A DNA stretch of 64,000 nt from Pseudidiomarina aestuarii (lineage in GTDB: Bacteria > Pseudomonadota > Gammaproteobacteria > Enterobacterales > Alteromonadaceae): positions 186,001 to 250,000 of the forward strand of contig NZ_PIPR01000001.1 in the NCBI RefSeq assembly GCF_003987355.1. Direction: 5' to 3'. Below, piece after piece: positions 8,396 to 59,618 of this stretch. The notes beneath the pieces were generated by a model, which was not told the DNA's origin, did no database searches, and saw only the letters and a list, made by a program, of their open reading frames with translations. The position numbers and the translations under genes were made by a program. The number at the start of each line of letters is the position of its first letter. Within the stretch, counting starts at the first letter, position 1.

Positions 8396-8755
8396 GGGGC
8401 TGATTTGGATTCGACGGGATACACGAAACCCAAGGTGCATGCCGAGGTGAGGCTGGCCTCGTAAAAAGCCTCAACTTAATAGTTGCAAACGACGACAACT
8501 ACGCTTTAGCGGCTTAATAACCCGCTGAGTCCGACCCCTAGCGCTTTGTCTGTGAGACTAGGATCAGTCGGTTCACCCCAAAGCAGACTCGCGTGGAGGC
8601 TTCGCCCGTAGCCAAAGCGTTAAAACCAATCGGGATCGTCACCTTAAGTAGCCTGTCTGTCGGCGACTTGGTGATTAACTAAATGACAGACTAAGCATGT
8701 AGGACCGAGGATGTAGGTATTACGGACGCGGGTTCAACTCCCGCCAGCTCCACCA
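8396..8755 (+). ncRNA. ssrA: tmRNA (transfer-messenger RNA)
   Basis: A one-piece tmRNA of about 360 nt. The 5' end GGGGCTGATTTGGATTCGACGGG and the 3' end GGGTTCAACTCCCGCCAGCTCCACCA form the tRNA-Ala-like half: acceptor stem 8396-8402 with 8745-8751 (one G-U pair), T-loop GTTCAACTC, and encoded CCA. The tag frame starts at GCA 8485 after TTAATAGTT and encodes ANDDNYALAA before TAATAA (8515-8520); with the first alanine supplied by the charged tmRNA the tag is AANDDNYALAA, of the Alteromonadales type. It rescues stalled ribosomes together with SmpB. Confidence 0.97.
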
Positions 8756-8763
8756 AATACCAA

Positions 8764-8794
8764 AAGGCCGCTTTCAGGAGCGGCCTTTTTTGTT
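8764..8794 (+). terminator. Rho-independent terminator of ssrA
   Basis: A 9-bp stem AAGGCCGCT / AGCGGCCTT (8764-8772 with 8779-8787) with a six-base loop, followed by a T-rich tail. It starts nine bases past the tmRNA CCA end. Confidence 0.9.
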
Positions 8795-9244
8795 TTAGGC
8801 GCACTTGTCGCCTAAGGATTTTGAAAACACGATTTTACGCTCCGTGGTATCAGTCCCACCTTCTACGCCAATGATTTCGTATCCATTCGATATCAACATC
8901 TTCAACATCTGGGGATAGCGATTCATGGATTTAACTTTGATTTGCTTGTAGCCTGCGTCAATTGCCCACTGTTCTTGGTGTTTAAGCAATAGCGTGGCTA
9001 TGCCAAGCTTTCGATGTGTGGGAATGACGCCGCCTATCCAGCTATAAAATGTCTCGTTAGTTAACTGATATCCGACCTTGTAGCCAACAATAGCGTCATC
9101 TATCTTGGCGACTAGGATCAGATGAACGGCTCCTTCCATCCTAGCTTTTAGTCGCTCAAGAGTGGTTTCTCGATCAAACTCGGGTATTTGCGCACAGATG
9201 GCTACAATGTCGGCTAATGTGCCAATGTCTATTTTTATGCTCAT
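8795..9244 (-). CDS. GNAT family N-acetyltransferase
   Basis: 149 residues, single GNAT domain. The acetyl-CoA-binding motif A reads VIPTHRKLGIATLLLKHQE (around residues 82-100). The following KVKSMNRYPQMLKMLISNGYEIIGVEG is the normal beta5-alpha4 region in which the side chain usually reads N-x-G-F/Y-Y. Substrate unknown. The gene converges on ssrA; its stop lies in a 7-bp inverted repeat (TTAGGCG...CGCCTAA, 8795-8815) right behind the ssrA terminator. It belongs to an AT-richer accessory stretch running to about 12.6 kb. Confidence 0.85.
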   Translation of the reverse strand: MSIKIDIGTLADIVAICAQIPEFDRETTLERLKARMEGAVHLILVAKIDDAIVGYKVGYQLTNETFYSWIGGVIPTHRKLGIATLLLKHQEQWAIDAGYKQIKVKSMNRYPQMLKMLISNGYEIIGVEGGTDTTERKIVFSKSLGDKCA

Positions 9245-9332
9245 ATCGAAACAACTAACGAGTTTTTACAGTTCTATTCGCTATTTTATAGCACTAGCTA
9301 TTGTGATTCTTTATCCAGAAAACAGGGCTATG

Positions 9333-9875
9333 CTACTTCGCTGTCAACTCAATCGAGTATAACCAGGCACCTTTCTTTACCTCTCCCTCTTTGTCGAAAG
9401 AGACACGTACGCGACCGTTCACTTTCACGTTGTCGATTTGTTGGTTTATGCGCTGTGGCTTGTCGGTATTAATGGCAATGTCATAGTCGTTTGAGGTTAG
9501 TTGGGGTTGTCCGACACATCCATTGATTTCTGCTGGATCTATGAATCGAATGAGCTTGTGAAGAGCATCAGTATTGTCGATTACGCCGTCCTTTTGGTCA
9601 TCTAGAAGGGTTAGCGCTTTATTTGGGCTTCTAGATTTCAGCAACACATTGGGTGAGCCCTGAATTGTCTGATAAAAGCATGCGCCTAAGTCTCTTTCAA
9701 GATAGAAAACGGGGAGGTCTGGGAAGAGGAAATTATGCACACGTCTATCTTCATGCGATTCGAGCGAGACTTCGACGGTTGGTTTAAATTTTTCTATGTT
9801 TACTGATTCAGAATAAGAGGTATCCAAAACGTAAAACATAGTGGTTGTTGCCAAAAATAAGCTCGTTAACATCAT
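9333..9875 (-). CDS. Hypothetical exported or membrane-anchored protein
   Basis: Unrecognised, about 180 residues. The frame is open back to a TTG at 9929, but AAGGA at 9882-9886, six bases before the ATG-ATG at 9875, decides the start as MMLTSLFLATTTMFYVLD. That gives an N-terminal hydrophobic segment (residues 2-18), either an uncleaved anchor or a signal peptide, followed by a polar domain with two cysteines (in LGACFYQT and INGCVGQP) that could form a disulfide. The C-terminus WLYSIELTAK looks like a terminal beta strand. It has lower GC than its surroundings and no homologue I can name. Confidence 0.6.
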   Translation of the reverse strand: MMLTSLFLATTTMFYVLDTSYSESVNIEKFKPTVEVSLESHEDRRVHNFLFPDLPVFYLERDLGACFYQTIQGSPNVLLKSRSPNKALTLLDDQKDGVIDNTDALHKLIRFIDPAEINGCVGQPQLTSNDYDIAINTDKPQRINQQIDNVKVNGRVRVSFDKEGEVKKGAWLYSIELTAK

Positions 9876-45774: not shown

Positions 45775-46485
45775 TTAAATATTTAGCGCTCTACCACCAT
45801 CAACTTTAATGGATTCCCCAGTAATAAAAGGGTTGTCGCGCAGAAATCTGACCGTATCTATCATCGGTTGTAAGCCACCCTCGACCTTCAACGGAGTTTG
45901 TGCGAGGACCGTTTGACGATGCTCAGAATCATGCTCGGGTAAGAATAGAATCGGGCCAGGTTGAATAGCGTTAACGCGAATTTCCGGTGCTAATGCTTTG
46001 GCAAACCCTTGGGTGAGATTCGCGAGACCAGCTTTTGCCGCACAATAAGCCAAATAGTCGGTGGACGGACTGTCTACGTATATATCAGTAATGTTTAAAA
46101 CTAATGCTTGGCCAGACTCTTTGAGTTCTTGTTGCAAGCCAGAAATGAGTAAATAGGGTGCGATAGTGTGCACGCGAAATACCGCATCCAGATTAGCTAA
46201 ACTCGCATCGACCGCCTCATTATTGAAGAAGCAGGATGCATTGTTCACCAACAGGTCAATTTTCAGCGTGTGCTGCTGCACAGTTTTTATTAACGCTTGG
46301 ACTTGGTTCAAATCAGCGAGATCGGCTTGCACGCCAATCGCACCTTTAGATTCGAGTTCTTCGACTCCTGCTTTGGACGTATTGTAATGAGCAAAAACAA
46401 GGTAATCCTCGGCGAGTAGCGCTTGCGCCAACTCGAAGCCAAAACGGCGGCCAGCGCCAGTGATGAGTGCGACACGCTGGGTCAT
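45775..46485 (-). CDS. folM: FolM-type dihydromonapterin/dihydrofolate reductase (SDR)
   Basis: 236 residues, classical short-chain dehydrogenase fold: N-terminal LITGAGRRFGFELAQALL (a TGxxR-x-G variant specific to pteridine reductases), LLVNNASCFF, catalytic tyrosine/lysine in YLAYCAAKAGLANL and the C-terminal GESIKVDGGRALNI. FolM reduces dihydromonapterin to tetrahydromonapterin. Its start overlaps the stop of the HPPK-like gene by 4 bp, linking two pterin enzymes. Assignment to FolM rests on the motif and this neighbour. Confidence 0.82.
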   Translation of the reverse strand: MTQRVALITGAGRRFGFELAQALLAEDYLVFAHYNTSKAGVEELESKGAIGVQADLADLNQVQALIKTVQQHTLKIDLLVNNASCFFNNEAVDASLANLDAVFRVHTIAPYLLISGLQQELKESGQALVLNITDIYVDSPSTDYLAYCAAKAGLANLTQGFAKALAPEIRVNAIQPGPILFLPEHDSEHRQTVLAQTPLKVEGGLQPMIDTVRFLRDNPFITGESIKVDGGRALNI

Positions 46486-46892
46486 AAAGTGACTTGCTCC
46501 TGCTCAGTTAATCGTTGTGCAATAGGTTGTAGTGAGGGGATGGCGCTGGCTAGATAAGCTGGAACGGATTCCCAGACATCTTCATCAATAGCACCCAGAA
46601 TATCGATATCCATAGGTCGATCTTTTTTACTGCATTCAGGATCGTCTCTATCACGACCCAGCTCAGTCTCAATTTTGTTAAAGGCCATTTTTAAAACTTC
46701 GGCATCGAGCTGTGTCGCGATTACAAATAGCGAATTCAAAAAATCATGTTCGGTGTCGATATCAACTGGTTTCGTATAGACCGCACGCGAGTAATGGATC
46801 TCGCCCAATGGGGTCAGTTTCGACCGTGCTTTGGCGAAATTCTCTTCAGGAGCCAAGTTGGCTCCCATACTGCATAGATACACGTATATCAT
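46482..46892 (-). CDS. folK: HPPK-like pyrophosphokinase (short FolK)
   Basis: 136 residues against about 160 for E. coli FolK. The family pattern is present: VYLCSMGANLAPEENFAKA at the start, YTKPVDIDTEHDFLNSLFVI, and the metal-binding RPMDIDILGA equivalent to the DLDIML of FolK. The loop before it reads GRDRDDPECSKKDRP, rather than the RWGPRTLD type, and the C-terminus is shorter, so the protein may be a paralogue with altered pterin specificity. It is coupled by ATGA to folM and could supply or salvage monapterin. Main folK presumably lies elsewhere. Confidence 0.75.
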   Translation of the reverse strand: MIYVYLCSMGANLAPEENFAKARSKLTPLGEIHYSRAVYTKPVDIDTEHDFLNSLFVIATQLDAEVLKMAFNKIETELGRDRDDPECSKKDRPMDIDILGAIDEDVWESVPAYLASAIPSLQPIAQRLTEQEQVTL

Positions 46893-47068: not shown

Positions 47069-47566
47069 GTGCCGAAGGTCACTCGGTTAGTGCGTCGATA
47101 TTGCAGTTTTTTGGCTGCATTAGTAGCAGTAATGTTCACTGCAACTCAGGTTTCTGCTCAAGACTATCAACTGAGTGGACCTGACGGATCTGTGCGCGCC
47201 GGATACTTCGTAGTCGAAGCGTCTCTGGTGGAATCAGCAGAAAATCCGATACCACTATCCGAGCTTCAACTTCAACAAGCCACCTCCACAGATTTCACTA
47301 ATCCCAAATATTATCGCTACTTTGGCGATTTCTCTGAGCTCACCGCTACGGGTGTGCCATCGGGTCAGTATTTTTTGCGTCTGGTGGATGAGCAGGGGCA
47401 TTCGCATAGCAATGTGATTGAAGTGACCGTTGACCATTACTCATTGTGGCAGGCTTTATCGTTATTCGGTATTGGCTTGCTGTTGTTTGTGATTCTTGTA
47501 GCGACACAACTGTATTTTTTCAAACGTGCTTCACAGCAAGCAAGCCAAGGAGTGAACCATGAGTGA
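47069..47566 (+). CDS. Exported fibronectin-III-like membrane protein, unknown
   Basis: 165 residues from GTG 47069 (GGAAGGA just upstream; the longer frame from a TTG at 47021 overlaps the candidate promoter). A signal peptide ends near VSAQD. Residues 32-125 read as one beta-sandwich of fibronectin type III kind: ATSTDFTNPKYYRYF, GVPSGQYFLRLVDEQGHSHS and NVIEVTVDHY give the strand order, including the G-strand. One membrane helix follows (about 130-152) with a short basic cytoplasmic tail. It overlaps the symporter gene by eight bases, so it is probably a periplasmic partner or ligand-capture accessory of the transporter. No homologue I can name. Confidence 0.7.
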   Translation: MPKVTRLVRRYCSFLAALVAVMFTATQVSAQDYQLSGPDGSVRAGYFVVEASLVESAENPIPLSELQLQQATSTDFTNPKYYRYFGDFSELTATGVPSGQYFLRLVDEQGHSHSNVIEVTVDHYSLWQALSLFGIGLLLFVILVATQLYFFKRASQQASQGVNHE

Positions 47567-48992
47567 TTCTGGCTTTGCGCTGAGCACCGAGCTAGGTCTT
47601 TGGCTTGTCGTTCTGTTTGGCTGCGCGTGGATAGCTTTTGGCTGGTATTTGGGGCGCGCGAATAAAAGCCACGAGGACTTTGCCTTAGCCGGACGCAACG
47701 TTGGTATGGCTCTGGCTGCTGCAACCGCTATGGCGACCTGGGTCACTAGCAACACCACGTTAGTCGCGCCGCAACTGACTTATCAGTTCGGAATCTGGGG
47801 CATGGTGGGATATTCATTCGCTGCGCTCGGCCTCATTTTATTTGCGCCGCTTGCTGCGCGCATCAAACAACTCATGCCGAACGGCTACACGTCGGGCGAT
47901 TTCATCCGACTCAGGTATGGCCGCGCTGCATGGTGGGCCTTTATTGTCATCTCTGTAGTTTATGCATTTGGTTGGTTGGTATCGTTGGGTATGGCTGGAG
48001 GCATACTCTTGCAAGCCTTGAGCGGCTTAGATTATCACATCGGTATGTCAGCTATTTTGTTGATTTGTGTAGGCTACACCCTTTTTGGTGGCTTACGAGC
48101 GGTCATCGCGACGGATTTTATTCAAGCGGTGATAATCATTCTTGGTGTGGTGCTGATCGCGTGGTTTTTAATTGATACTGTCAGCTTAGACTCGATTCAT
48201 CGTGAGCTCAGTGGCGAACATCCACAATTACTCGATTTACTATTCCCAGCTGCCATCATGTTTTTGTTCAACAATATCTTTTTTGGTTTGGGAGAGATCT
48301 TCCATTCCAATGTGTGGTGGTCACGCGCACTCGCTTTTCGTGGCAAAGTCGCCATGAAGGCGTTTTTATTAGGGGGTTTGTTGTGGCTACCGATCCCGAT
48401 TGTCACGGGGTTTATTGCGCTCGCCGCGCCACAATTAGGTATCTTCCCACCGAGTGCTGATATGGTTGGACCTATGGTTGCCGCCGAAGTACTGGGTAAA
48501 GTTGGGGCAGTGGTTGTGTTTGTGGTGGTGTTCTCTGCATTGGCATCAAGTTTAGATTCGCTGCTTGCTGCAACTGCCGACCTAGTTACCCGCGACTTCT
48601 ACCACAAAAAATTCAATCCGCAGGCAGGCGACCGCCAACTGATGCGCGTCAATCGTTACAGTATTATCGGCTTGGGTGTGCTGACCTGGCTGTTTTGTCT
48701 GCCGCAAATAGCCACACTGGGCGCCTTGCTGAATTTTGCCGGAGCCTTTGTTGCTAGCACTATTTTCCCCGTTGTCCTCGGTTTGTATAGCCGCCGAATA
48801 ACCGGAGCCTATGCCGCAACTGCTATGACATTGGGTACACTGCTTGGATTAATCAGCTACTTTATGATTGGGTTCTATGTCGCCGCTCTGATTTCCTGTG
48901 CAGTTTCCGCCAGTATTTGTGCACTTGGGTTGTGGCGCAGCAATTCAGCGTTTAAGTGGGACCAATTAGCGGAGCGCGAGGAGTCACTATGA
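47559..48992 (+). CDS. Sodium:solute symporter (SSS family)
   Basis: 477 residues, about 13 hydrophobic helices. SSS/SLC5 features: the N-terminal LAGRNVGMALAAATAMATWVT (helix 1 unwinding and Na+ site), GGLRAVIATDFIQAVIIILG (sodium-site helix), and VFSALASSLDSLLAATADLVTRDFY, the helix 8 Ser/Ser Na+ ligands. It looks nearest to the urea/amide-transporting branch of the family, but this is an impression. AAGGAG precedes the ATG inside the preceding gene. Its stop overlaps the next start as ATGA. Substrate likely relates to the two enzymes downstream. Confidence 0.9.
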   Translation: MSDSGFALSTELGLWLVVLFGCAWIAFGWYLGRANKSHEDFALAGRNVGMALAAATAMATWVTSNTTLVAPQLTYQFGIWGMVGYSFAALGLILFAPLAARIKQLMPNGYTSGDFIRLRYGRAAWWAFIVISVVYAFGWLVSLGMAGGILLQALSGLDYHIGMSAILLICVGYTLFGGLRAVIATDFIQAVIIILGVVLIAWFLIDTVSLDSIHRELSGEHPQLLDLLFPAAIMFLFNNIFFGLGEIFHSNVWWSRALAFRGKVAMKAFLLGGLLWLPIPIVTGFIALAAPQLGIFPPSADMVGPMVAAEVLGKVGAVVVFVVVFSALASSLDSLLAATADLVTRDFYHKKFNPQAGDRQLMRVNRYSIIGLGVLTWLFCLPQIATLGALLNFAGAFVASTIFPVVLGLYSRRITGAYAATAMTLGTLLGLISYFMIGFYVAALISCAVSASICALGLWRSNSAFKWDQLAEREESL

Positions 48993-49108
48993 TGAGTCTG
49001 ACGGGTTTTAGTGTATTGGTTTACGTGTGTCTCGCATTGACTGCTTGTGCACCGATTATTTTACTGGGGCTATGGCTCAAGGATTTCATTTCTAAACAAT
49101 TATGGTAA
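48989..49108 (+). CDS. 39-residue membrane miniprotein
   Basis: Begins MMSLTGFSVLVYVCLALTAC and continues APIILLGLWLKDFISKQLW: one transmembrane helix (about 7-30) with a basic C-terminus (KDFISKQ). GAGGAG upstream, ATGA overlap with the symporter stop and six bases to the carbamoyltransferase start make it a genuine operon member. It is probably a small subunit of the symporter, comparable in idea to other very small transporter partners. The cysteines at 14 and 20 precede APII; the second looks like a lipobox Cys, but the N-terminus has no basic residue, so lipidation is doubtful. Confidence 0.75.
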   Translation: MMSLTGFSVLVYVCLALTACAPIILLGLWLKDFISKQLW

Positions 49109-49114
49109 TCAATT

Positions 49115-50179
49115 ATGAACGTAAATGACGTTTCGTTTGAGCGAGAGCGTCCGGATGTCTATGGTGATGCGCATCCGAAAGCCCTGCTACGAGCTATCCA
49201 AGAGGATGGTGATTACTTGGTGCAATTAGCCAATCAGCACATTGTTTCTGGTGATCAGTTTAATCAAGAAACCATGAAACAACTCTTTCGTTTGGCTGCG
49301 AAAATAGAGAGTAACCCAAAGCGGTTTAGCTCCCCGTTGCAGAATAAAATTTTGATTAGTGCATTCTACGAGCCGAGCACCCGCACGCGACTCTCCTTTG
49401 AGAGTGCATGGCATCGTCTTGGTGGCGATATTATGTCTATTACCGATAGGTCTACCACTGGAATTGCGAAAGGCGAATGCTTAGCCGATGTCGCGGAAAT
49501 GTTTAACAACTACGGTGACTGTGTCGTGTTGCGGGATACCCAAGAAAGCTCGCTGTTTGAGATGATGGACGCATTGCGGATCCCAATTATTAATGCCGGT
49601 AACGGTGTGGACGAACATCCAACACAAGCGCTATCGGATATGTACGCCATTTTTAAATGGTGCCCGGAATTGATTGATCCTGCTAATAACACCTCGATCA
49701 AGCTGGGTATTATTGGTGTTCCAAACAAAATGCGCACGGTTCGCAGTTTCCTGAAGTGCTTGTCGGTATTTCCGCATGCAGTGAGCGAAGTGGTGGTGAT
49801 TCACGATAGCGCGAGTGAGACCGAACTATTCGGGCCAGGGCAGCGTGAAGAACTAGAAAGTCGCGGATTAAAAATCACGACATCAACCGACTTGGATGCG
49901 TGTTTACCGACCTTGGATGTGGTTTACATTAATGCGATTTCTTGGGAAGGCGATACCTTCAATACTTATGGCAGCAAGTTTCATTTGAACGCGCAGTCAC
50001 CTCTGAAAGAAAACGCAATTATTCTCCACCCGTTGGCGCGTGGCGAAGAATTAGCAACCGATTTAGATCATACCGCCCACAATTGGTATTTCAGCCAAGC
50101 GCGCGGTGCCGTATTCCTCAGAATGGCGTTACTCACTTGTATGGTCGAGCGCGCAGAGCGTGTTATTGACGTCGTTTAA
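49115..50179 (+). CDS. Aspartate carbamoyltransferase-like transferase with altered acceptor site
   Basis: 354 residues, about 40 longer than PyrB at the N-terminus. Carbamoyl-phosphate residues are conserved: STRT at 88-91 in FYEPSTRTRLSFESA, Lys119 in AKGECLAD, Arg140, HPTQ at 168-171 and Arg207 in MRTVRSF. The aspartate site is not: where PyrB has R229-x-Q231 the sequence reads YINAISWEG (Ala274, Ser276), and HPLPR becomes HPLARGEEL (305-312). So it should carbamoylate an amine other than aspartate. It lies six bases behind the miniprotein and 19 before the amidotransferase. It is not the housekeeping pyrB, and no pyrI accompanies it. Confidence 0.85.
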   Translation: MNVNDVSFERERPDVYGDAHPKALLRAIQEDGDYLVQLANQHIVSGDQFNQETMKQLFRLAAKIESNPKRFSSPLQNKILISAFYEPSTRTRLSFESAWHRLGGDIMSITDRSTTGIAKGECLADVAEMFNNYGDCVVLRDTQESSLFEMMDALRIPIINAGNGVDEHPTQALSDMYAIFKWCPELIDPANNTSIKLGIIGVPNKMRTVRSFLKCLSVFPHAVSEVVVIHDSASETELFGPGQREELESRGLKITTSTDLDACLPTLDVVYINAISWEGDTFNTYGSKFHLNAQSPLKENAIILHPLARGEELATDLDHTAHNWYFSQARGAVFLRMALLTCMVERAERVIDVV

Positions 50180-50198
50180 GCAGTAAGGAGACGAATTT

Positions 50199-52214
50199 AT
50201 GTGTGGAATTGCAGGTGTTTTTCAGCAGCAACCGAATGCTGCTATTGAGGCGCAAACGCTCGTCAATATGGCCGCTATTATGCATCACCGTGGACCCGAC
50301 GGTTTCGGTTATGACCGTATGGAGGACTGTGGTGTTGGGTTTAGTCATGCACGCTTGTCGATTATTGATTTAGATGAAGATCGTGCACGGCAGCCATTTC
50401 GTTCGGCCAACGATCGATTACTGTTGGCTCACAACGGCGAATTTTATGATTTTAAGCGGATCCGCGCGGACCTGACGGCTCAGGGTGCTCGGTTTCGTAC
50501 CAAAAGCGACTCTGAAATTGTTTTGCACTTATTCGAGCGCGTGGGATTGGAAGCAACACTGAAAGAATTACGCGGCGAGTTTGCTTTTGCGTTATTTGAT
50601 CGTGATGAAGATGCGTTGTATCTGGTGCGGGACCGTTTCGGTATCAAACCGTTGTATTACACCGAAACCGACAACGGATTGGTATTTGGGTCGGAATTGA
50701 AGGTGTTGTTCGCACATCCTGATGTCAAACGTGAGTTTTCAACCGAAGGTCTTCTGCATCAGCTTATTCAAGTTATGGTGCCGGGCTCAACTGCGTTTGA
50801 GGGCATTCATCAGGTGGCACCAGGGCATGTGGTGAAAGTGACCCGAAAGCAGGGCAAATTGGCGATCGAAACCAGTAAGTATTGGGATGTGAAATTTCCT
50901 TTAGCGCATGAGTACCCGGGCGATGAAGTTGATGAAACACCCTACATTGAAGGGGTACGTAAACATCTATTAGAAGCCGTTCAGCATCGCTTAACAGCCG
51001 ATGTTCCGGTCGGTTGCTACCTCTCTGGCGGGATTGATTCGTGTGCGATTCTAGGGCTATCTGCAGCGTCTACACAGACCTCCGTGAAAGCCTTTACCAT
51101 TGGCTTTGATTCCAGTGACTATGATGAGACACCCATTGCCCAAGAAATGGCGGAGGCCACCGGTGCGGATCATCACATCATGCGACTCAAAGCCGATGAT
51201 CTGTATGATCATTTTGTCAAAACGATTTGGCATACGGAACGCACCATATACAACACTCTGGGCGTGGCAAAATATTTGATGAGTCAGCAAGTTCATGATG
51301 TGAACTATAAAGTGGTGTTGACGGGCGAAGGCTCGGACGAATTATTTGCAGGCTATCCAGCATTCCGTAAAGACATGTTTTTACATGGCTTAGACCACCT
51401 TCCTGACAGTGAGCGCAAAGCGTGGCAAGAGCTGCTGGAGAAGAACAATAAGCTCTTTAAGGGCGCTATGTTGGCGCGTGAAGAGTTTGTCAGTCCAGCT
51501 TTTAACGCCAAGATGGGTTTCACCCCAAGTTGTGTCCAGCCATGGTTATCCTGTGCTGATGTCGCACTGCCTTTGATAGCGGCTGAGCGGCGCGCTGATG
51601 TGGAAGATTACGACCCAGGCTCGGCTATTGCAGCAACCCTCGATGAAGAAATGCTTAAGGGTAGGCACCCGCTCGATCGAGCGCAGTATGTGTGGATCAA
51701 AACAATGTTGGAAGGGCAAATTCTGACTTGGGGTGGCGACCGAGTAGATATGGCAAACTCAATGGAAGCGAGGCCGGCGTTTTTGGATCATCATTTGGCT
51801 GAGTATGCGTTCACCGTTCCGCCACATTTACGGATCAAAGGTAATAAAGAGAAATATGTGCTGCGTGAGGCGATGAAGGGGTTGCTCCCGGAAACGTTGT
51901 ATAAGCGCGAGAAGTTTGCATTTATGGCCCCGCCGGCGCATACGGATCCGAAGAAATGGCAAGCTGTTCTAAAATTAGCGGAGCAGTTTTTGTCTGAAGA
52001 GCCGGTCACTCAAGCCGGTTTGTTGGACTACGAGATGGTCCAAGCCACTTTTGCCAAACATGAAGATGAAACGGTTCCGATTGATGAAAAAGTTCAATTG
52101 GATGCGGTGATTAATCACATGTTAGGGGTACAAATTTTGCACCATCATTTCGTGCAAACTGACGTGCCTGAGTTAGCTGCAAAGCGAGCGAGAGAGCTAG
52201 GCTGGCACGCATAG
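50199..52214 (+). CDS. Asparagine synthetase-like glutamine amidotransferase
   Basis: 671 residues, longer than E. coli AsnB (554) and nearer the Bacillus type. The N-terminal class II glutaminase is complete: Cys2 after Met removal (CGIAGVF), HHRGPDGFG, ARLSIIDL, HNGEFYDF (Asn79) and TKSDSE (Asp104). The synthetase half has the ATP-pyrophosphatase loop YLSGGIDSCAI (276-281) and GEGSDELFAGY (377-387). It should activate a carboxylate with ATP and convert it to an amide. Given its partners, the acceptor may be a carbamoylated amino acid rather than aspartate, in the manner of the AsnO enzyme of N-acetylglutaminylglutamine amide synthesis; this is inference. AAGGAG is nine bases before the ATG. 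Confidence 0.9.
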   Translation: MCGIAGVFQQQPNAAIEAQTLVNMAAIMHHRGPDGFGYDRMEDCGVGFSHARLSIIDLDEDRARQPFRSANDRLLLAHNGEFYDFKRIRADLTAQGARFRTKSDSEIVLHLFERVGLEATLKELRGEFAFALFDRDEDALYLVRDRFGIKPLYYTETDNGLVFGSELKVLFAHPDVKREFSTEGLLHQLIQVMVPGSTAFEGIHQVAPGHVVKVTRKQGKLAIETSKYWDVKFPLAHEYPGDEVDETPYIEGVRKHLLEAVQHRLTADVPVGCYLSGGIDSCAILGLSAASTQTSVKAFTIGFDSSDYDETPIAQEMAEATGADHHIMRLKADDLYDHFVKTIWHTERTIYNTLGVAKYLMSQQVHDVNYKVVLTGEGSDELFAGYPAFRKDMFLHGLDHLPDSERKAWQELLEKNNKLFKGAMLAREEFVSPAFNAKMGFTPSCVQPWLSCADVALPLIAAERRADVEDYDPGSAIAATLDEEMLKGRHPLDRAQYVWIKTMLEGQILTWGGDRVDMANSMEARPAFLDHHLAEYAFTVPPHLRIKGNKEKYVLREAMKGLLPETLYKREKFAFMAPPAHTDPKKWQAVLKLAEQFLSEEPVTQAGLLDYEMVQATFAKHEDETVPIDEKVQLDAVINHMLGVQILHHHFVQTDVPELAAKRARELGWHA

Positions 52215-56150: not shown

Positions 56151-57971
56151 CTAAAACTGAATGTCGGCGTACACCGGGTCATGATCAGACGAGCGAAACG
56201 GCGAGTTACTCACCCATTCTGGATTATCGATCGCTTGATTATATTGCAGTGCTGTCGGTTCGTCGGCATTGATTGACCAATGGTGCTGACGCACGACGCG
56301 ATTGTGCAAGGTCGTTGACACTAAAAGGTGATCAAGACTGCCTGCTTGCCCAGCGAATACGTAAGAATAACCATTCGGTTCAAATACATCGACACGATTG
56401 TGATAACCACGTTGCAGGAGCAATTGAATAGGCTCTTCCTGGGCATAGGCATTGAAATCGCCCAGCAGCACACGTGCTTCTATTCGTGCTGTACGTGGAT
56501 CATTCTCCAAAAAATCAGCCAGTAGTTGCGCCGATTGCACGCGAACACCATTCCAACAGGCTTGTCCGTCAGAATTATTTTGATTCAAAGGGTCAGCGGT
56601 GCGTGGGCAGCCTCCCTTAGATTTGAAATGATTTACCGCAACCAAGAAAGACTCTTGATTATGCGTGGGTGTGAACTGTTGAATCAGCGGATACCGACTG
56701 CGAGCGCCGAATGGATACTCGGTTACAGTCAATACAGAGCCTTCTGGAGTCACTTTATCAGCTCGATAAAGCAGACCATTGGTGATTTGAACGGAACCAA
56801 ACGGACCGGATTCCGTGGCGCGAACAAACTCCCAAGGATGACCGGTTTGCGCTTTCAAAGCCGCGGTGAGTTGCACAATTGCGCTTGCCGTATCGTAACC
56901 ATCATTCTCGATTTCCATGAGTCCGACGATATGCGCATTCATGGCTGCGATGGCTTGCACGATTTTCGCCTCTTGCAAAGTAAATGCAGCCGGATTTTTC
57001 GCACCGCGCTCGGTTGGAAACGATTTTTCCTCACCTTCGCCATTGAAGTAATTCAACACGTTAAATGCGCTAATACGGATGGTTTGTGTTGCAGGTGCCG
57101 GTGGAGCGGCAGGCCGTTGCGCTAATTCAGAAACCACGACGGGTTGTGTTGGTTGAATTCGATAATCAGAATTGAACTCGCTAAATATGCCGGTTACGGG
57201 CTTGATAGTCGTTCCAGCTCGCAAGCTGTTAGCTGAAGTGAGAGCGGGTGCTGGATAGGGAACCAATTCTGGGTTTGGGGCTTGATTGTCGTCTATCGTA
57301 ATTAGACTGCGACTATTGTAATCGGAAACTTGTTGCGCTTCTGTACCCGGCTGAACTCGCTGTGTGGGTGTAAATAAACGTTCTGGCGCAGCCTGAAACT
57401 GACCATGCCGTGCCAAGTTATAATTACCATTCACTACCAATGAAGAACTCGTCGTAACTAACATGCCTTCATACTGCTCAAACTGAGCCAGAATCTCGAC
57501 GGGGAGTGACAGTTCTGCAGCTTGGGGTTGTTCAGTAGCACCGCAAACAGTCACTTGAGTGACTTGTTGCAACTGAGTCAGTTGTTCATCTTCGGACACG
57601 GTGCCGGTTACACTGACTATTTCACCGGGTTTTACAAGTGTATTTGAAGCGATGGCGGCATAAGTAACAAATAATCCTTCAGCAGTTGTAGGATCGTTAT
57701 CTGCATCCTCGGATAGGCTCTGCATAAAAAAGCCACCAAGCTCTGTTTCACCTTGAAAGTTCGCGGTGACCACGCCCCGAACCGTGAGCACTTGGTCGAG
57801 ATACGGTGACTGAGCTTGATTGCCTTGAATCGCATGAATCGGTGTGGTCGATTCGGCACAAATAGGTGGTGCTGCCGAAAAACTGCAGGCACTCAGAAGG
57901 GTAATGGCTGCGGAACTGGCTAACAGCCAGTGTAATTTCGATTGAGTACTAGTCTGATTGTGTTTCAACAT
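56151..57971 (-). CDS. ExeM/NucH-type extracellular endonuclease lipoprotein
   Basis: 606 residues with a lipobox signal (TLLSAC, Cys29). An N-terminal OB-fold-like part (30-150, YLDQVLTVRGVVTANFQGETELGGFFMQ) is followed by an EEP-family nuclease domain (295-600): SAFNVLNYFN, IVGLMEIENDGYD (metal Glu), VAVNHFKSKGG, LLGDFNAYAQEEP (Asp/Asn) and the final SDHDPVYADI. The family degrades extracellular DNA for nutrient and biofilm use. The C-terminal membrane anchor found in ExeM is not present. It overlaps the marR gene by 23 bases. Confidence 0.9.
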   Translation of the reverse strand: MLKHNQTSTQSKLHWLLASSAAITLLSACSFSAAPPICAESTTPIHAIQGNQAQSPYLDQVLTVRGVVTANFQGETELGGFFMQSLSEDADNDPTTAEGLFVTYAAIASNTLVKPGEIVSVTGTVSEDEQLTQLQQVTQVTVCGATEQPQAAELSLPVEILAQFEQYEGMLVTTSSSLVVNGNYNLARHGQFQAAPERLFTPTQRVQPGTEAQQVSDYNSRSLITIDDNQAPNPELVPYPAPALTSANSLRAGTTIKPVTGIFSEFNSDYRIQPTQPVVVSELAQRPAAPPAPATQTIRISAFNVLNYFNGEGEEKSFPTERGAKNPAAFTLQEAKIVQAIAAMNAHIVGLMEIENDGYDTASAIVQLTAALKAQTGHPWEFVRATESGPFGSVQITNGLLYRADKVTPEGSVLTVTEYPFGARSRYPLIQQFTPTHNQESFLVAVNHFKSKGGCPRTADPLNQNNSDGQACWNGVRVQSAQLLADFLENDPRTARIEARVLLGDFNAYAQEEPIQLLLQRGYHNRVDVFEPNGYSYVFAGQAGSLDHLLVSTTLHNRVVRQHHWSINADEPTALQYNQAIDNPEWVSNSPFRSSDHDPVYADIQF

Positions 57972-58434
57972 AACTTCCTACATCAAGAACTTCAGCTGCA
58001 TCCAGCCGTTCGGCGTTCATCATGGCAGCAATGCGTTGCATCGCCGCTAATAATTGTGATTGTTCCCAATCTTCTAAATCTTGGAAACGCTCAATAAAGT
58101 CTTCTTGTAAAGGGCGTGGTGCGGCATGCATGCGCTCAGCGCCTGCTGCAGTTAACCAAAGTACGACGCGTCGTCGGTCTTGCGTACTTCGCTCGCGGCG
58201 AATTAACTGTTTATGTTCAAGGCGATCGATGACGTTGCTGACGGTTGCCGGGCTGAGCGTAATATTTTGTGCGACGGCACTGGCGGTAATACCCTCGGAT
58301 GCAGCAGCGACTTCACGCAAGATAAGCAACTGCGGAGCCGTGAGCCCCGCGAGCTTATTCAGTTGCTTCGAATAGAGGTCAGTGGCGCGGATAACTTTCC
58401 GCAGTGCCAGCAATAATTCTTCGTGCTTCTCCAT
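57949..58434 (-). CDS. MarR family transcriptional regulator
   Basis: 161 residues from the ATG at 58434 (the longer frame begins at a TTG without ribosome site). The winged helix runs 30-110: TAPQLLILREVAAASEGITASAVAQNITLSPATVSNVIDRLEHKQLI (recognition helix PATVSNVIDRL) and the wing RRERSTQDRRRVVLWLT. Helices at either end form the dimer interface. Ligand unknown. It sits between csiV and nucH with 17-base and overlapping junctions, and may control the nuclease. Confidence 0.88.
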   Translation of the reverse strand: MEKHEELLLALRKVIRATDLYSKQLNKLAGLTAPQLLILREVAAASEGITASAVAQNITLSPATVSNVIDRLEHKQLIRRERSTQDRRRVVLWLTAAGAERMHAAPRPLQEDFIERFQDLEDWEQSQLLAAMQRIAAMMNAERLDAAEVLDVGSYVETQSD

Positions 58435-58451
58435 CTTTCTGCCTGTTTGAA

Positions 58452-59618
58452 TCAACGTCGCGCTGACAAATCAGTGCGGCGAATCTGCACTACGATACCG
58501 AACTTCGGGTGGTCAAAATAATGCGTCTCATGACTAATCACTCGGCGCAATTGTTGCAAATCATAGCGCCGCAAGAAAGGTTGCGTCTGCTCTTGCCCAT
58601 CAATAGCGAGTTGCGCTTGGTCGGCTAGGGTGCCAGCACTAAACCGCACGGTTTCGGGTTGTCGCAGTTGTAAGTCACTTTCAATGTGCAGGTAGTTTGC
58701 CACCAAATAGATGTGAAGCAAGCCTTCAAGTTCCCACAAGGGTTGCTTCTCAATGACATCAGGCCGGTTGGCCGGCGGTGGCGGCGGCGTCTTTTGCTCA
58801 CGCAAGGTCAGTTCTAAGTCACCCTGATCGGCCATTTGGAGTAGTTCTTCGAGTTGTGTGAATAACTCTTCTTGCGGGGCTAAAGAGGGGCGCTCGGGTT
58901 GCTCAAGAGCAGACCATTCCGCAAATTGTGACTCGGAGTCAGGTTGGGGCAATAGATAGCCGTCCTCAGCAAAACGATTGCCGAAGTTTGCGCCACCGAA
59001 TACGCGGAATGTATACCTATCGGAACGGTTGAAGACGGGTTGCCGAACGACTTGATGCAGAAGTGGTTTACCCACATTTCGACGCACTAAGTTATCACGT
59101 AGCTCAATCAGTTCCATGTCCGTTGCAGGCAGTAAAAATGGCCGTGGAGAATTCTCCATCTCACCACCAAACCCATCAACCACATTAACCGGCGCAGCAT
59201 CAAATCGATTGAGACGAGCAAGCGGCATTGTCAATGTTTTGTTGTAGCTTAAATCAAGTTCATTGGGTTGGTGACATAACCATATTGCTTCGCCTTTCAT
59301 TAGCGCCTTGTCATAGTCGCAAGGATCGGTTTCGTACAGGAAGCTACCAAAGTCTGGTGCATAGTAGGAGGTCAATAGATCATTGCGCGCATTTTGAACC
59401 GGACGTGGTGGTAGCCACGGGAATTGCTCGGTTACATCACTATTCGAATGTTTAAATATCAGCACCTCGACATCAAACCACCGCCATTGCGATGGGTCGA
59501 CGGGTTGTGTGGTGCCATTGGTCTGAGCTAGCGCGGGACCTGCCGTAGCAAGAAACGACAAACTCGCAAGGCTAGTGACAGTCAATCGCCAAAACTGTCG
59601 CACATATGATTGACGCAT
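58452..59618 (-). CDS. csiV: CsiV family peptidoglycan-binding protein
   Basis: 388 residues. Signal peptide 1-31 (cleavage after ALA). The family start WRWFDVEVLIFKHSN is followed by FPWLPPRPVQN and the conserved YETDPCDYDKALMKG. It acts with the lytic or synthase machinery to keep cell shape; CsiV is known from Vibrio. In gammaproteobacteria it commonly lies next to mfd, as here (two-base gap). An acidic Pro-rich stretch (270-285, KTPPPPPANRP) precedes the C-terminal strand-rich part. Confidence 0.88.
   Translation of the reverse strand: MRQSYVRQFWRLTVTSLASLSFLATAGPALAQTNGTTQPVDPSQWRWFDVEVLIFKHSNSDVTEQFPWLPPRPVQNARNDLLTSYYAPDFGSFLYETDPCDYDKALMKGEAIWLCHQPNELDLSYNKTLTMPLARLNRFDAAPVNVVDGFGGEMENSPRPFLLPATDMELIELRDNLVRRNVGKPLLHQVVRQPVFNRSDRYTFRVFGGANFGNRFAEDGYLLPQPDSESQFAEWSALEQPERPSLAPQEELFTQLEELLQMADQGDLELTLREQKTPPPPPANRPDVIEKQPLWELEGLLHIYLVANYLHIESDLQLRQPETVRFSAGTLADQAQLAIDGQEQTQPFLRRYDLQQLRRVISHETHYFDHPKFGIVVQIRRTDLSARR

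What the first reader, a model, noticed from the sequence alone, without database searches (positions are those of the whole stretch)
47069..52214. Five-gene unit: symporter plus carbamoyltransferase plus amidotransferase
FN3-like membrane protein, SSS symporter, 39-aa miniprotein, ATCase-like enzyme and AsnB-like enzyme are joined by overlaps or gaps of 6-19 bp, so they act together. Seen: carbamoyl-phosphate site retained, aspartate site lost, full glutaminase and synthetase motifs. Known: AsnB homologues amidate the terminal carboxylate of the osmolyte N-acetylglutaminylglutamine amide, and N-alpha-carbamoyl-L-glutamine 1-amide has been reported as a compatible solute in the halophile Ectothiorhodospira marismortui. 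Inference: this operon may carbamoylate an amino acid such as glutamine and amidate its carboxylate to make a carbamoyl-amide osmolyte, with Na+-coupled uptake. I know of no described gene set for this.
Basis: partly seen in the sequence, partly recalled or inferred. Interest (0 to 1): 0.85.

Follow-up and report, generated by a model that had tools for sequence, protein, structure and literature searches.

The report
Genes for a carbamoyl-amide salt protectant
A conserved set of marine bacterial genes looks like the missing recipe for a rare salt-protecting molecule, N-carbamoyl-glutamine amide, and the same enzyme pair sits in the genus of purple bacteria in which that molecule was found.

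Summary
The five genes are real and abut as described. The carbamoyltransferase is neither PyrB nor ArgF (both exist elsewhere in the genome): carbamoyl-phosphate ligands are invariant in 132 of 132 aligned relatives, while the aspartate side-chain ligands R229 and Q231 are lost and R167 is kept. The AsnB-like enzyme is not needed for asparagine (AsnA and AsnRS present, GatB absent). The pair is adjacent in 80 of 80 named loci, with the symporter in 79.

(1) Related operons also carry an N-carbamoyl-L-amino-acid hydrolase and an isochorismatase-fold amidohydrolase, as if to dismantle a carbamoylated, amidated amino acid. (2) All 10 Ectothiorhodospira genomes examined carry hydrolase-amidohydrolase-carbamoyltransferase-AsnB; one fits E. 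marismortui, the reported producer of N-carbamoyl-L-glutamine 1-amide, in size, G+C and contig number. (3) A MarR gene of a family often found beside ectoine genes and, in some, an MscS-like channel lie near the genes.

I conclude that this is very probably the biosynthetic system for N-carbamoyl-glutamine amide or a close analogue used as an osmolyte. I found no gene set for it in the papers searched. Glutamine as acceptor, salt induction and the metabolite in Pseudidiomarina are untested.

The parts
47069..47566 (+). FN3-like membrane protein: N-terminal signal-like stretch (by eye), one beta-sandwich, C-terminal transmembrane helix; probable symporter accessory subunit (inferred)
   Evidence: family alignment; AF2 and Foldseek; upstream in 78 of 80 named loci
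47559..48992 (+). SSS sodium:solute symporter; nearest solved relatives are DUR3 urea symporters (E 2.9e-32; next, sodium/glucose transporter, 6.7e-10)
   Evidence: in 79 of 80 named loci
48989..49108 (+). 39-aa hydrophobic miniprotein, probable symporter partner (inferred)
   Evidence: detectable in 68 of 80 named loci
49115..50179 (+). Carbamoyltransferase of an ATCase-like family: carbamoyl-phosphate site and R167 kept, R229 and Q231 lost, W at K232; proposed N-carbamoylation of an amino acid, most likely glutamine
50199..52214 (+). AsnB-like glutamine-dependent amidotransferase; proposed amidation of the alpha-carboxylate of the N-carbamoyl amino acid
   Evidence: the only full-length AsnB homologue found in the genome
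57949..58455 (-). MarR regulator of a family that lies beside ectC in other genomes (EctR/CosR-like setting); possible osmotic regulator, about 6 kb downstream

Best explanation
[quoted passage not shown] Step 1 (inferred): the carbamoyltransferase moves the carbamoyl group of carbamoyl phosphate to the alpha-amine of an amino acid, most likely glutamine; R167 would hold the alpha-carboxylate and the rebuilt side-chain pocket takes a neutral side chain. Step 2 (inferred): the AsnB-like enzyme adenylates the remaining alpha-carboxylate and amidates it with ammonia from glutamine. The symporter with FN3 protein and miniprotein (inferred) recaptures the solute. When salt falls, the solute leaves by mechanosensitive channels or is dismantled by an amidase and the carbamoylase (inferred); a carbamoylase-family gene is beside the genes in most relatives outside Idiomarinaceae and elsewhere on the chromosome in this genome. 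A MarR regulator (inferred) ties expression to salinity. Shown here: gene order, conservation, site residues, linked hydrolase genes, and presence in Ectothiorhodospira.
For: Not PyrB/ArgF: true PyrB (637.8 bits, cut-off 512) and ArgF are elsewhere, and this protein fails TIGR00670 (196.7 vs 236.95). Site: 132 of 132 aligned rows (two genomes appear twice) keep S52-T55, K84, R105, H134, Q137, R167; R229 is A/S/T and Q231 is A/S/V/T; N at T228 and W at K232 are invariant. AsnA and AsnRS present, GatB absent. AsnB adjacency in 80 of 80 named loci, 19 of 19 class loci, 14 of 15 further family loci. N-carbamoyl-L-amino-acid hydrolase family gene in 38 of 44 non-Idiomarinaceae named loci, 19 of 19 and 14 of 15; isochorismatase-fold amidohydrolase in 19 of 19 and 14 of 15. 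Own carbamoylase of the same NCBIfam subfamily at G000:C1:1907861. Ectothiorhodospira: enzyme named in E. magna and E. lacustris; 10 of 10 genomes of the genus carry it and 10 of 10 have hydrolase-amidohydrolase-CTase-AsnB. G322 (2.6 Mb, 40 contigs, 68.5% GC locus) fits E. marismortui DSM 4180 (2,624,954 bp, 35 contigs, 68.2%; PMC8877833 table passage), the species reported to accumulate CGA (PMC1224877 passage). MarR family: 20 of 53 places within 10 kb of ectC, 6 within 10 kb of the CTase. MscS-like gene beside the operon in 5 of the 10 Ectothiorhodospira loci.
Against: No biochemical, metabolite or expression data. Glutamine as acceptor rests on site logic and on the solute of one species. 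G322 is unnamed; its identity is by size, G+C and contig number (strain DG9 of the same species is nearly as good a fit). The AsnB-like protein passes the broad asparagine synthase model TIGR01536 (451.8 vs 267.1), and the five Ectothiorhodospira genomes searched hold several AsnB homologues, so AsnB there is not unique. The carbamoylase's best NCBIfam label is 'allantoate amidohydrolase'. The amidohydrolase is missing from 79 of 80 named loci, so how this clade would remove the amide is unknown; the one isochorismatase of this genome shows no significant similarity to it. No enrichment with ectoine synthase: 3 of 23 carriers vs 50 of 346 non-carriers. MarR is near the CTase in only 6 of 23 carriers, three of them weak matches, and 27 of the 53 MarR places are near neither gene. 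Thiorhodospira sibirica (L171) has a lone CTase.
Confidence: 0.72

Rival explanations
1. Same chemistry and role, but a different amino acid: the product is the N-carbamoyl amide of asparagine, citrulline or another neutral amino acid, at least in the Idiomarina clade.
For: The clade with this window is separated from the Ectothiorhodospira clade (100/100, midpoint-rooted tree). The side-chain pocket is read from sequence only.
Against: The residues at PyrB positions 227 (I), 228 (N), 230 (I), 232 (W) and 268 (A) are invariant in both clades (132 of 132 rows), which argues for one acceptor; CGA is the solute reported for E. marismortui (PMC1224877 passage).
Confidence: 0.15
2. Catabolic unit: a DUR3-like symporter imports ureido compounds, which the carbamoylase and amidohydrolase break down; the carbamoyltransferase runs backwards to give carbamoyl phosphate.
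For: Symporter nearest to urea transporter DUR3 among solved structures; the hydrolase's best NCBIfam label is 'allantoate amidohydrolase'.
Against: The AsnB-like ATP-dependent amidotransferase is attached in 80 of 80 named loci. The 10 Ectothiorhodospira loci have no symporter in the stretch fetched. The operon is in the ammonia oxidiser Nitrosomonas halophila, and the CTase in Nitrosococcus oceani, both autotrophs (recalled).
Confidence: 0.06
3. A nitrogen-rich storage or export compound rather than an osmolyte.
For: CGA carries four nitrogens (from its structure); no association with ectoine synthase.
Against: Linkage in part of the loci to a MarR family that sits beside ectC, and to MscS-like genes; CGA is reported as an osmolyte.
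Confidence: 0.04
4. Ordinary housekeeping: a second aspartate carbamoyltransferase and an asparagine synthetase that happen to be neighbours.
For: TIGR01536 above cut-off; databases name the first protein aspartate carbamoyltransferase or aspartate/ornithine carbamoyltransferase family protein.
Against: R229/Q231 lost in 132 of 132 rows, PyrB and AsnA present elsewhere, adjacency conserved over many genera.
Confidence: 0.03

Closest known systems
[quoted passage not shown]
   Same: Needs one alpha-N-carbamoylation and one alpha-carboxylate amidation of glutamine; the gene pair is in Ectothiorhodospira genomes, one fitting E. marismortui.
   Different: The compound is known but no gene set was found in the papers searched; product unproven in Pseudidiomarina.
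N-acetylglutaminylglutamine amide (NAGGN) osmolyte system
   Same: AsnB-type enzyme amidates a terminal carboxylate of an N-blocked glutamine derivative (recalled).
Aspartate carbamoyltransferase PyrB
   Same: Family domains, carbamoyl-phosphate site, R167.
   Different: R229 and Q231 lost, S80->G, about 35-residue N-terminal extension, below the cut-off of every NCBIfam carbamoyltransferase model listed.
EctR1/CosR MarR regulators of compatible-solute genes
   Same: The linked MarR family lies beside ectC in 20 of 53 places; EctR1/CosR repress ectoine and betaine genes (PMC7876524 passages).
   Different: Not compared with EctR1/CosR sequences directly; the Ectothiorhodospira MarR matches are only 30-37% identical to the query; binding to this operon untested.

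Membership tests
Aspartate carbamoyltransferase (PyrB) | Carbamoyl-phosphate ligands S52-T55, R105, H134, Q137 | tested here: met
   132 of 132 rows, two genomes twice
Aspartate carbamoyltransferase (PyrB) | Aspartate side-chain ligands R229 and Q231 (roles recalled) | tested here: not met
   R229 A/S/T, Q231 A/S/V/T in 132 of 132 rows
Aspartate carbamoyltransferase (PyrB) | NCBIfam TIGR00670 cut-off | tested here: not met
   196.7 vs 236.95 bits
Asparagine synthetase AsnB | Glutaminase Cys2 and synthetase PP-loop motifs; TIGR01536 cut-off | tested here: met
   All motifs sought are in P0004. In 109 of 114 loci an ORF was picked by MCGI.G and RGPD (so these two are by construction); of the 109, SGG.DS 109, SD[ST]E 107, GEGSDE 105, [HYNS]NGE 82; 5 loci dropped. 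TIGR01536 451.8 vs 267.1
Asparagine synthetase AsnB | Free aspartate as substrate | not testable with these tools
   Context argues against it: AsnA present
NAGGN amidotransferase | TIGR03104 cut-off | tested here: not met
   303.6 vs 570.1 bits
CGA biosynthesis system (proposed) | Gene pair present in the producing genus | tested here: met
   10 of 10 genomes of the genus holding E. magna
CGA biosynthesis system (proposed) | Present in E. marismortui itself | tested here: inconclusive
   G322 fits by size, G+C and contig number only
CGA biosynthesis system (proposed) | CGA made by the two enzymes | not testable with these tools
   Needs assay
Osmolyte gene set | Salt-dependent expression | not testable with these tools
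   Only indirect: MarR linkage
DUR3 urea symporters | Sequence affinity among SSS proteins | tested here: inconclusive
   Best PDB hits by over 20 orders of magnitude in E-value; no tree, substrate residues not checked
N-carbamoyl-L-amino-acid hydrolases (linked gene) | TIGR01879 cut-off | tested here: met
   L130 382.9, L116 370.2, L072 348.0 and own 348.5 vs 204 bits; substrate untested

The most novel reading that the evidence does not exclude
This is the unknown biosynthetic pathway of CGA, and CGA, reported in the passages I saw only from purple sulfur bacteria, is a widespread osmolyte of marine and halophilic proteobacteria (Idiomarinaceae, Alteromonas, Pseudoalteromonas, Kangiella, Thioalkalivibrio, Nitrosococcus), with its own uptake system of symporter, FN3 protein and miniprotein, its own breakdown enzymes and an ectoine-type regulator.
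Probability: 0.65. Interest if true: 0.88.

Novelty: new variant of a known kind. Interest (0 to 1): 0.84.

Why it matters
CGA has been known since about 1991 (recalled) and no genes for it turned up in the papers searched. The gene set makes its biosynthesis testable with two purified enzymes and predicts the osmolyte in many genomes (219 related stretches in the named collection) in which the first enzyme is now labelled aspartate, or aspartate/ornithine, carbamoyltransferase. It would add a carbamoyltransferase family with a new acceptor, a possible ureido-solute symporter with two small partner proteins, and a new component of marine dissolved organic nitrogen.

Tried and rejected
Asparagine or pyrimidine housekeeping was rejected. 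Plasmid spread: no match at E 1e-60. Ectoine co-occurrence as a salt marker gave no association (counts). Sole-AsnB argument: holds for this genome but not for the five Ectothiorhodospira genomes searched. Paper searches for salt induction of these genes gave nothing usable, and a search on NAGGN genes nothing that I used. Papers seen as passages: PMC7824335, PMC1224877, PMC8877833, PMC5818414, PMC7876524; all others as search listings only. Spelling variants of the compound gave three papers and none. The second structure job, VIA-align and a symporter tree were not run.
Full report
WHAT IS THERE. The window lies in a 2.64-Mb Pseudidiomarina-like genome (nearest named relatives Pseudidiomarina). 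Family scans agree. The FN3 claim, invisible to Pfam, is borne out by an AlphaFold2 model (mean pLDDT 92.6, seven strands then a 39-residue helix; the modelled row starts at 47126, inside the signal-like stretch) whose best Foldseek match is an FN3 domain (E 2.6e-4).

NOT HOUSEKEEPING. The genome has three OTCace_N proteins: a true PyrB (PRK08192 637.8 bits, cut-off 512), a true ArgF (335.9 vs 280.85 in TIGR00658), and this one, which is below the cut-off of all 17 NCBIfam models that it matches. AsnA and AsnRS are present and GatB is absent, so asparagine does not depend on the AsnB-like protein, which is the only full-length AsnB homologue found.

ACTIVE SITE. I aligned 132 relatives with E. 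coli PyrB: 51 rows of the Ectothiorhodospira-side clade (49 genomes; G106 and G322 appear twice) and 81 of the Idiomarina-side clade. S52, T53, R54, T55, K84, R105, H134, Q137 and R167 are kept in 132 of 132. R229 is A (113), S (18) or T (1); Q231 is A (94), S (36), V (1) or T (1); T228 is N, K232 is W, P268 is A and S80 is G in all. From ATCase work (recalled) R229 and Q231 hold the aspartate side-chain carboxylate and R167 the other end. The site thus suits an alpha-amino acid with an uncharged side chain; that this is glutamine is inference.

CO-OCCURRENCE. The search for related loci gave 219 related stretches in named genomes; the best 80 were kept. AsnB lies within 1 kb downstream in 80 of 80 (cut by the contig end in L053), the symporter upstream in 79, FN3 in 78, a miniprotein detectable in 68 (order first seen). 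Hosts are mostly marine or saline genera (recalled), including Idiomarina, Alteromonas, Pseudoalteromonas, Kangiella and Nitrosomonas halophila. In an even draw of 369 genomes of the class, 23 (own included) have the CTase at E <= 1e-70. No plasmid record matched at E 1e-60.

THE SISTER OPERON. A maximum-likelihood tree (102 rows, midpoint root) splits the CTases into 21 and 81 rows (100/100). In 15 of the 19 longer class stretches of the smaller clade two more genes lie between FN3 and symporter; in the other 4 (L115, L116, L118, L123) they precede the CTase without FN3 or symporter. They are an M20 enzyme of the hydantoinase/carbamoylase family (TIGR01879 382.9 vs cut-off 204; best NCBIfam label 'allantoate amidohydrolase'; best solved relative N-carbamoyl-L-amino acid hydrolase 3n5f, E 9e-78) and an isochorismatase-fold amidohydrolase distantly related to biuret hydrolase and N-carbamoylsarcosine amidase. 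Both are in 19 of 19 class stretches and 14 of 15 further family stretches. In the window's own clade the carbamoylase gene is in the locus in 38 of 44 non-Idiomarinaceae and 0 of 36 Idiomarinaceae loci (L043, an unnamed MAG, counted with the latter by the tree). This genome keeps a carbamoylase of the same NCBIfam subfamily elsewhere (G000:C1:1907861-1909054), 56-65% identical to the 25 best of 48 operon-linked matches. Enzymes of families that cleave a carbamoyl group from an amino acid, and an amide, beside enzymes that would add them, point to a carbamoylated amino acid amide. The amidohydrolase itself is in only 1 of 80 named loci (L078), and the single isochorismatase of this genome is not similar to it: that part is unexplained.

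ECTOTHIORHODOSPIRA. [quoted passage not shown] marismortui, there equated with E. mobilis (PMC1224877, one passage). PMC7824335 (passages) lists it among solutes of purple sulfur bacteria that occur in marine and halophilic species only in addition to betaine, and says that Ectothiorhodospira lacks ectoine synthesis. The CTase is named in E. magna and E. lacustris. In the family of these genomes it is in 41 of 47 genomes, 38 of 38 good-quality ones. The genus g110 is Ectothiorhodospira: its G371 gives a 100% match on a contig of 117,115 bp, the contig length listed for the E. magna protein, and the contig of G376 has the length of Ectothiorhodospira sp. BSL-9 (3,550,080; PMC8877833 table passage). 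All 10 genomes of this genus have carbamoylase - amidohydrolase - CTase - AsnB (the CTase of G376 in two frames), a MarR match upstream in 9, an MscS-like match downstream in 5 (short in two of them), and no symporter in the stretch. G322 (2.6 Mb, 40 contigs, locus G+C 68.5%) fits E. marismortui DSM 4180 (2,624,954 bp, 35 contigs, 68.2%; strain DG9 with 2,682,160 bp, 40 contigs, 68.4% is close too), and G373 (2.8 Mb, 110 contigs) fits E. mobilis DSM 237 (2,796,053 bp, 119 contigs). Thiorhodospira sibirica (L171) has the CTase alone.

OSMOTIC LINKS. A MarR gene recurs near the operon (26 of 99 loci; 14 of 15 family stretches); in the window it is at 57949-58455. In the 369-genome draw this MarR family has 53 places at E <= 1e-18: 20 lie 1.4-3.9 kb from ectoine synthase, 6 within 10 kb of the CTase, 27 near neither (of the 42 stronger places 20 and 3; crude binomial odds 5e-30 and 8e-9, relatedness not corrected). 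That is the setting of EctR1 and CosR, MarR repressors of ectoine and betaine genes (PMC7876524 passages); their sequences were not compared. MscS-like genes beside part of the operons (183 bits, below the NCBIfam cut-off of 500) also fit. Against this, carriers are not enriched for ectoine synthase (3 of 23 vs 50 of 346), though this genome has both.

TRANSPORT. The symporter's nearest solved relatives are DUR3 urea symporters (E 2.9e-32; next 6.7e-10). A ureido group in the product would make sense of this, but no substrate residues were checked.

LITERATURE. Searches for the compound and for the gene combination found the compound in three papers and no gene set. Only open-licence PubMed Central papers were searched.

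VERDICT. Carbamoyl-amino-acid-amide osmolyte system: about 0.87 in all. Specifically CGA: 0.72. The mechanism is inferred; gene content, order, site residues and taxonomic placement are shown.

Noticed in passing
L171 (G412, contig length 2,936,659, as listed for the Thiorhodospira sibirica protein P0249): CTase without AsnB, carbamoylase or amidohydrolase in 18 kb.
   Followed up: no
L169, about 8675-9717 (Ectothiorhodospira sp. BSL-9-like G376): The CTase matches in two frames, as if broken by a frameshift or a sequencing error; described only.
   Followed up: no
L117, about 883-2877: AsnB-like gene also matches in two frames.
   Followed up: no
L078 (MAG labelled Hyphomicrobiaceae): CTase of the Idiomarina-side clade together with carbamoylase and amidohydrolase closer to the other clade's type; a mixed operon or a binning artefact.
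   Followed up: partly
G000:C1:1692374-1692751: The genome also has ectoine synthase, not next to the MarR gene of the window.
   Followed up: partly
L111 and L112 (G033, G312): CTase hits near contig ends or on short contigs; neighbourhood not extended.
   Followed up: no
P0207 (protein list): A Leptospiraceae MAG is listed with a close CTase relative; in the lists I saw, the only hint of the family outside Pseudomonadota.
   Followed up: no
window 45775-46892 -: Pteridine reductase-like SDR and a FolK-like gene lie divergently upstream of the operon.
   Followed up: no
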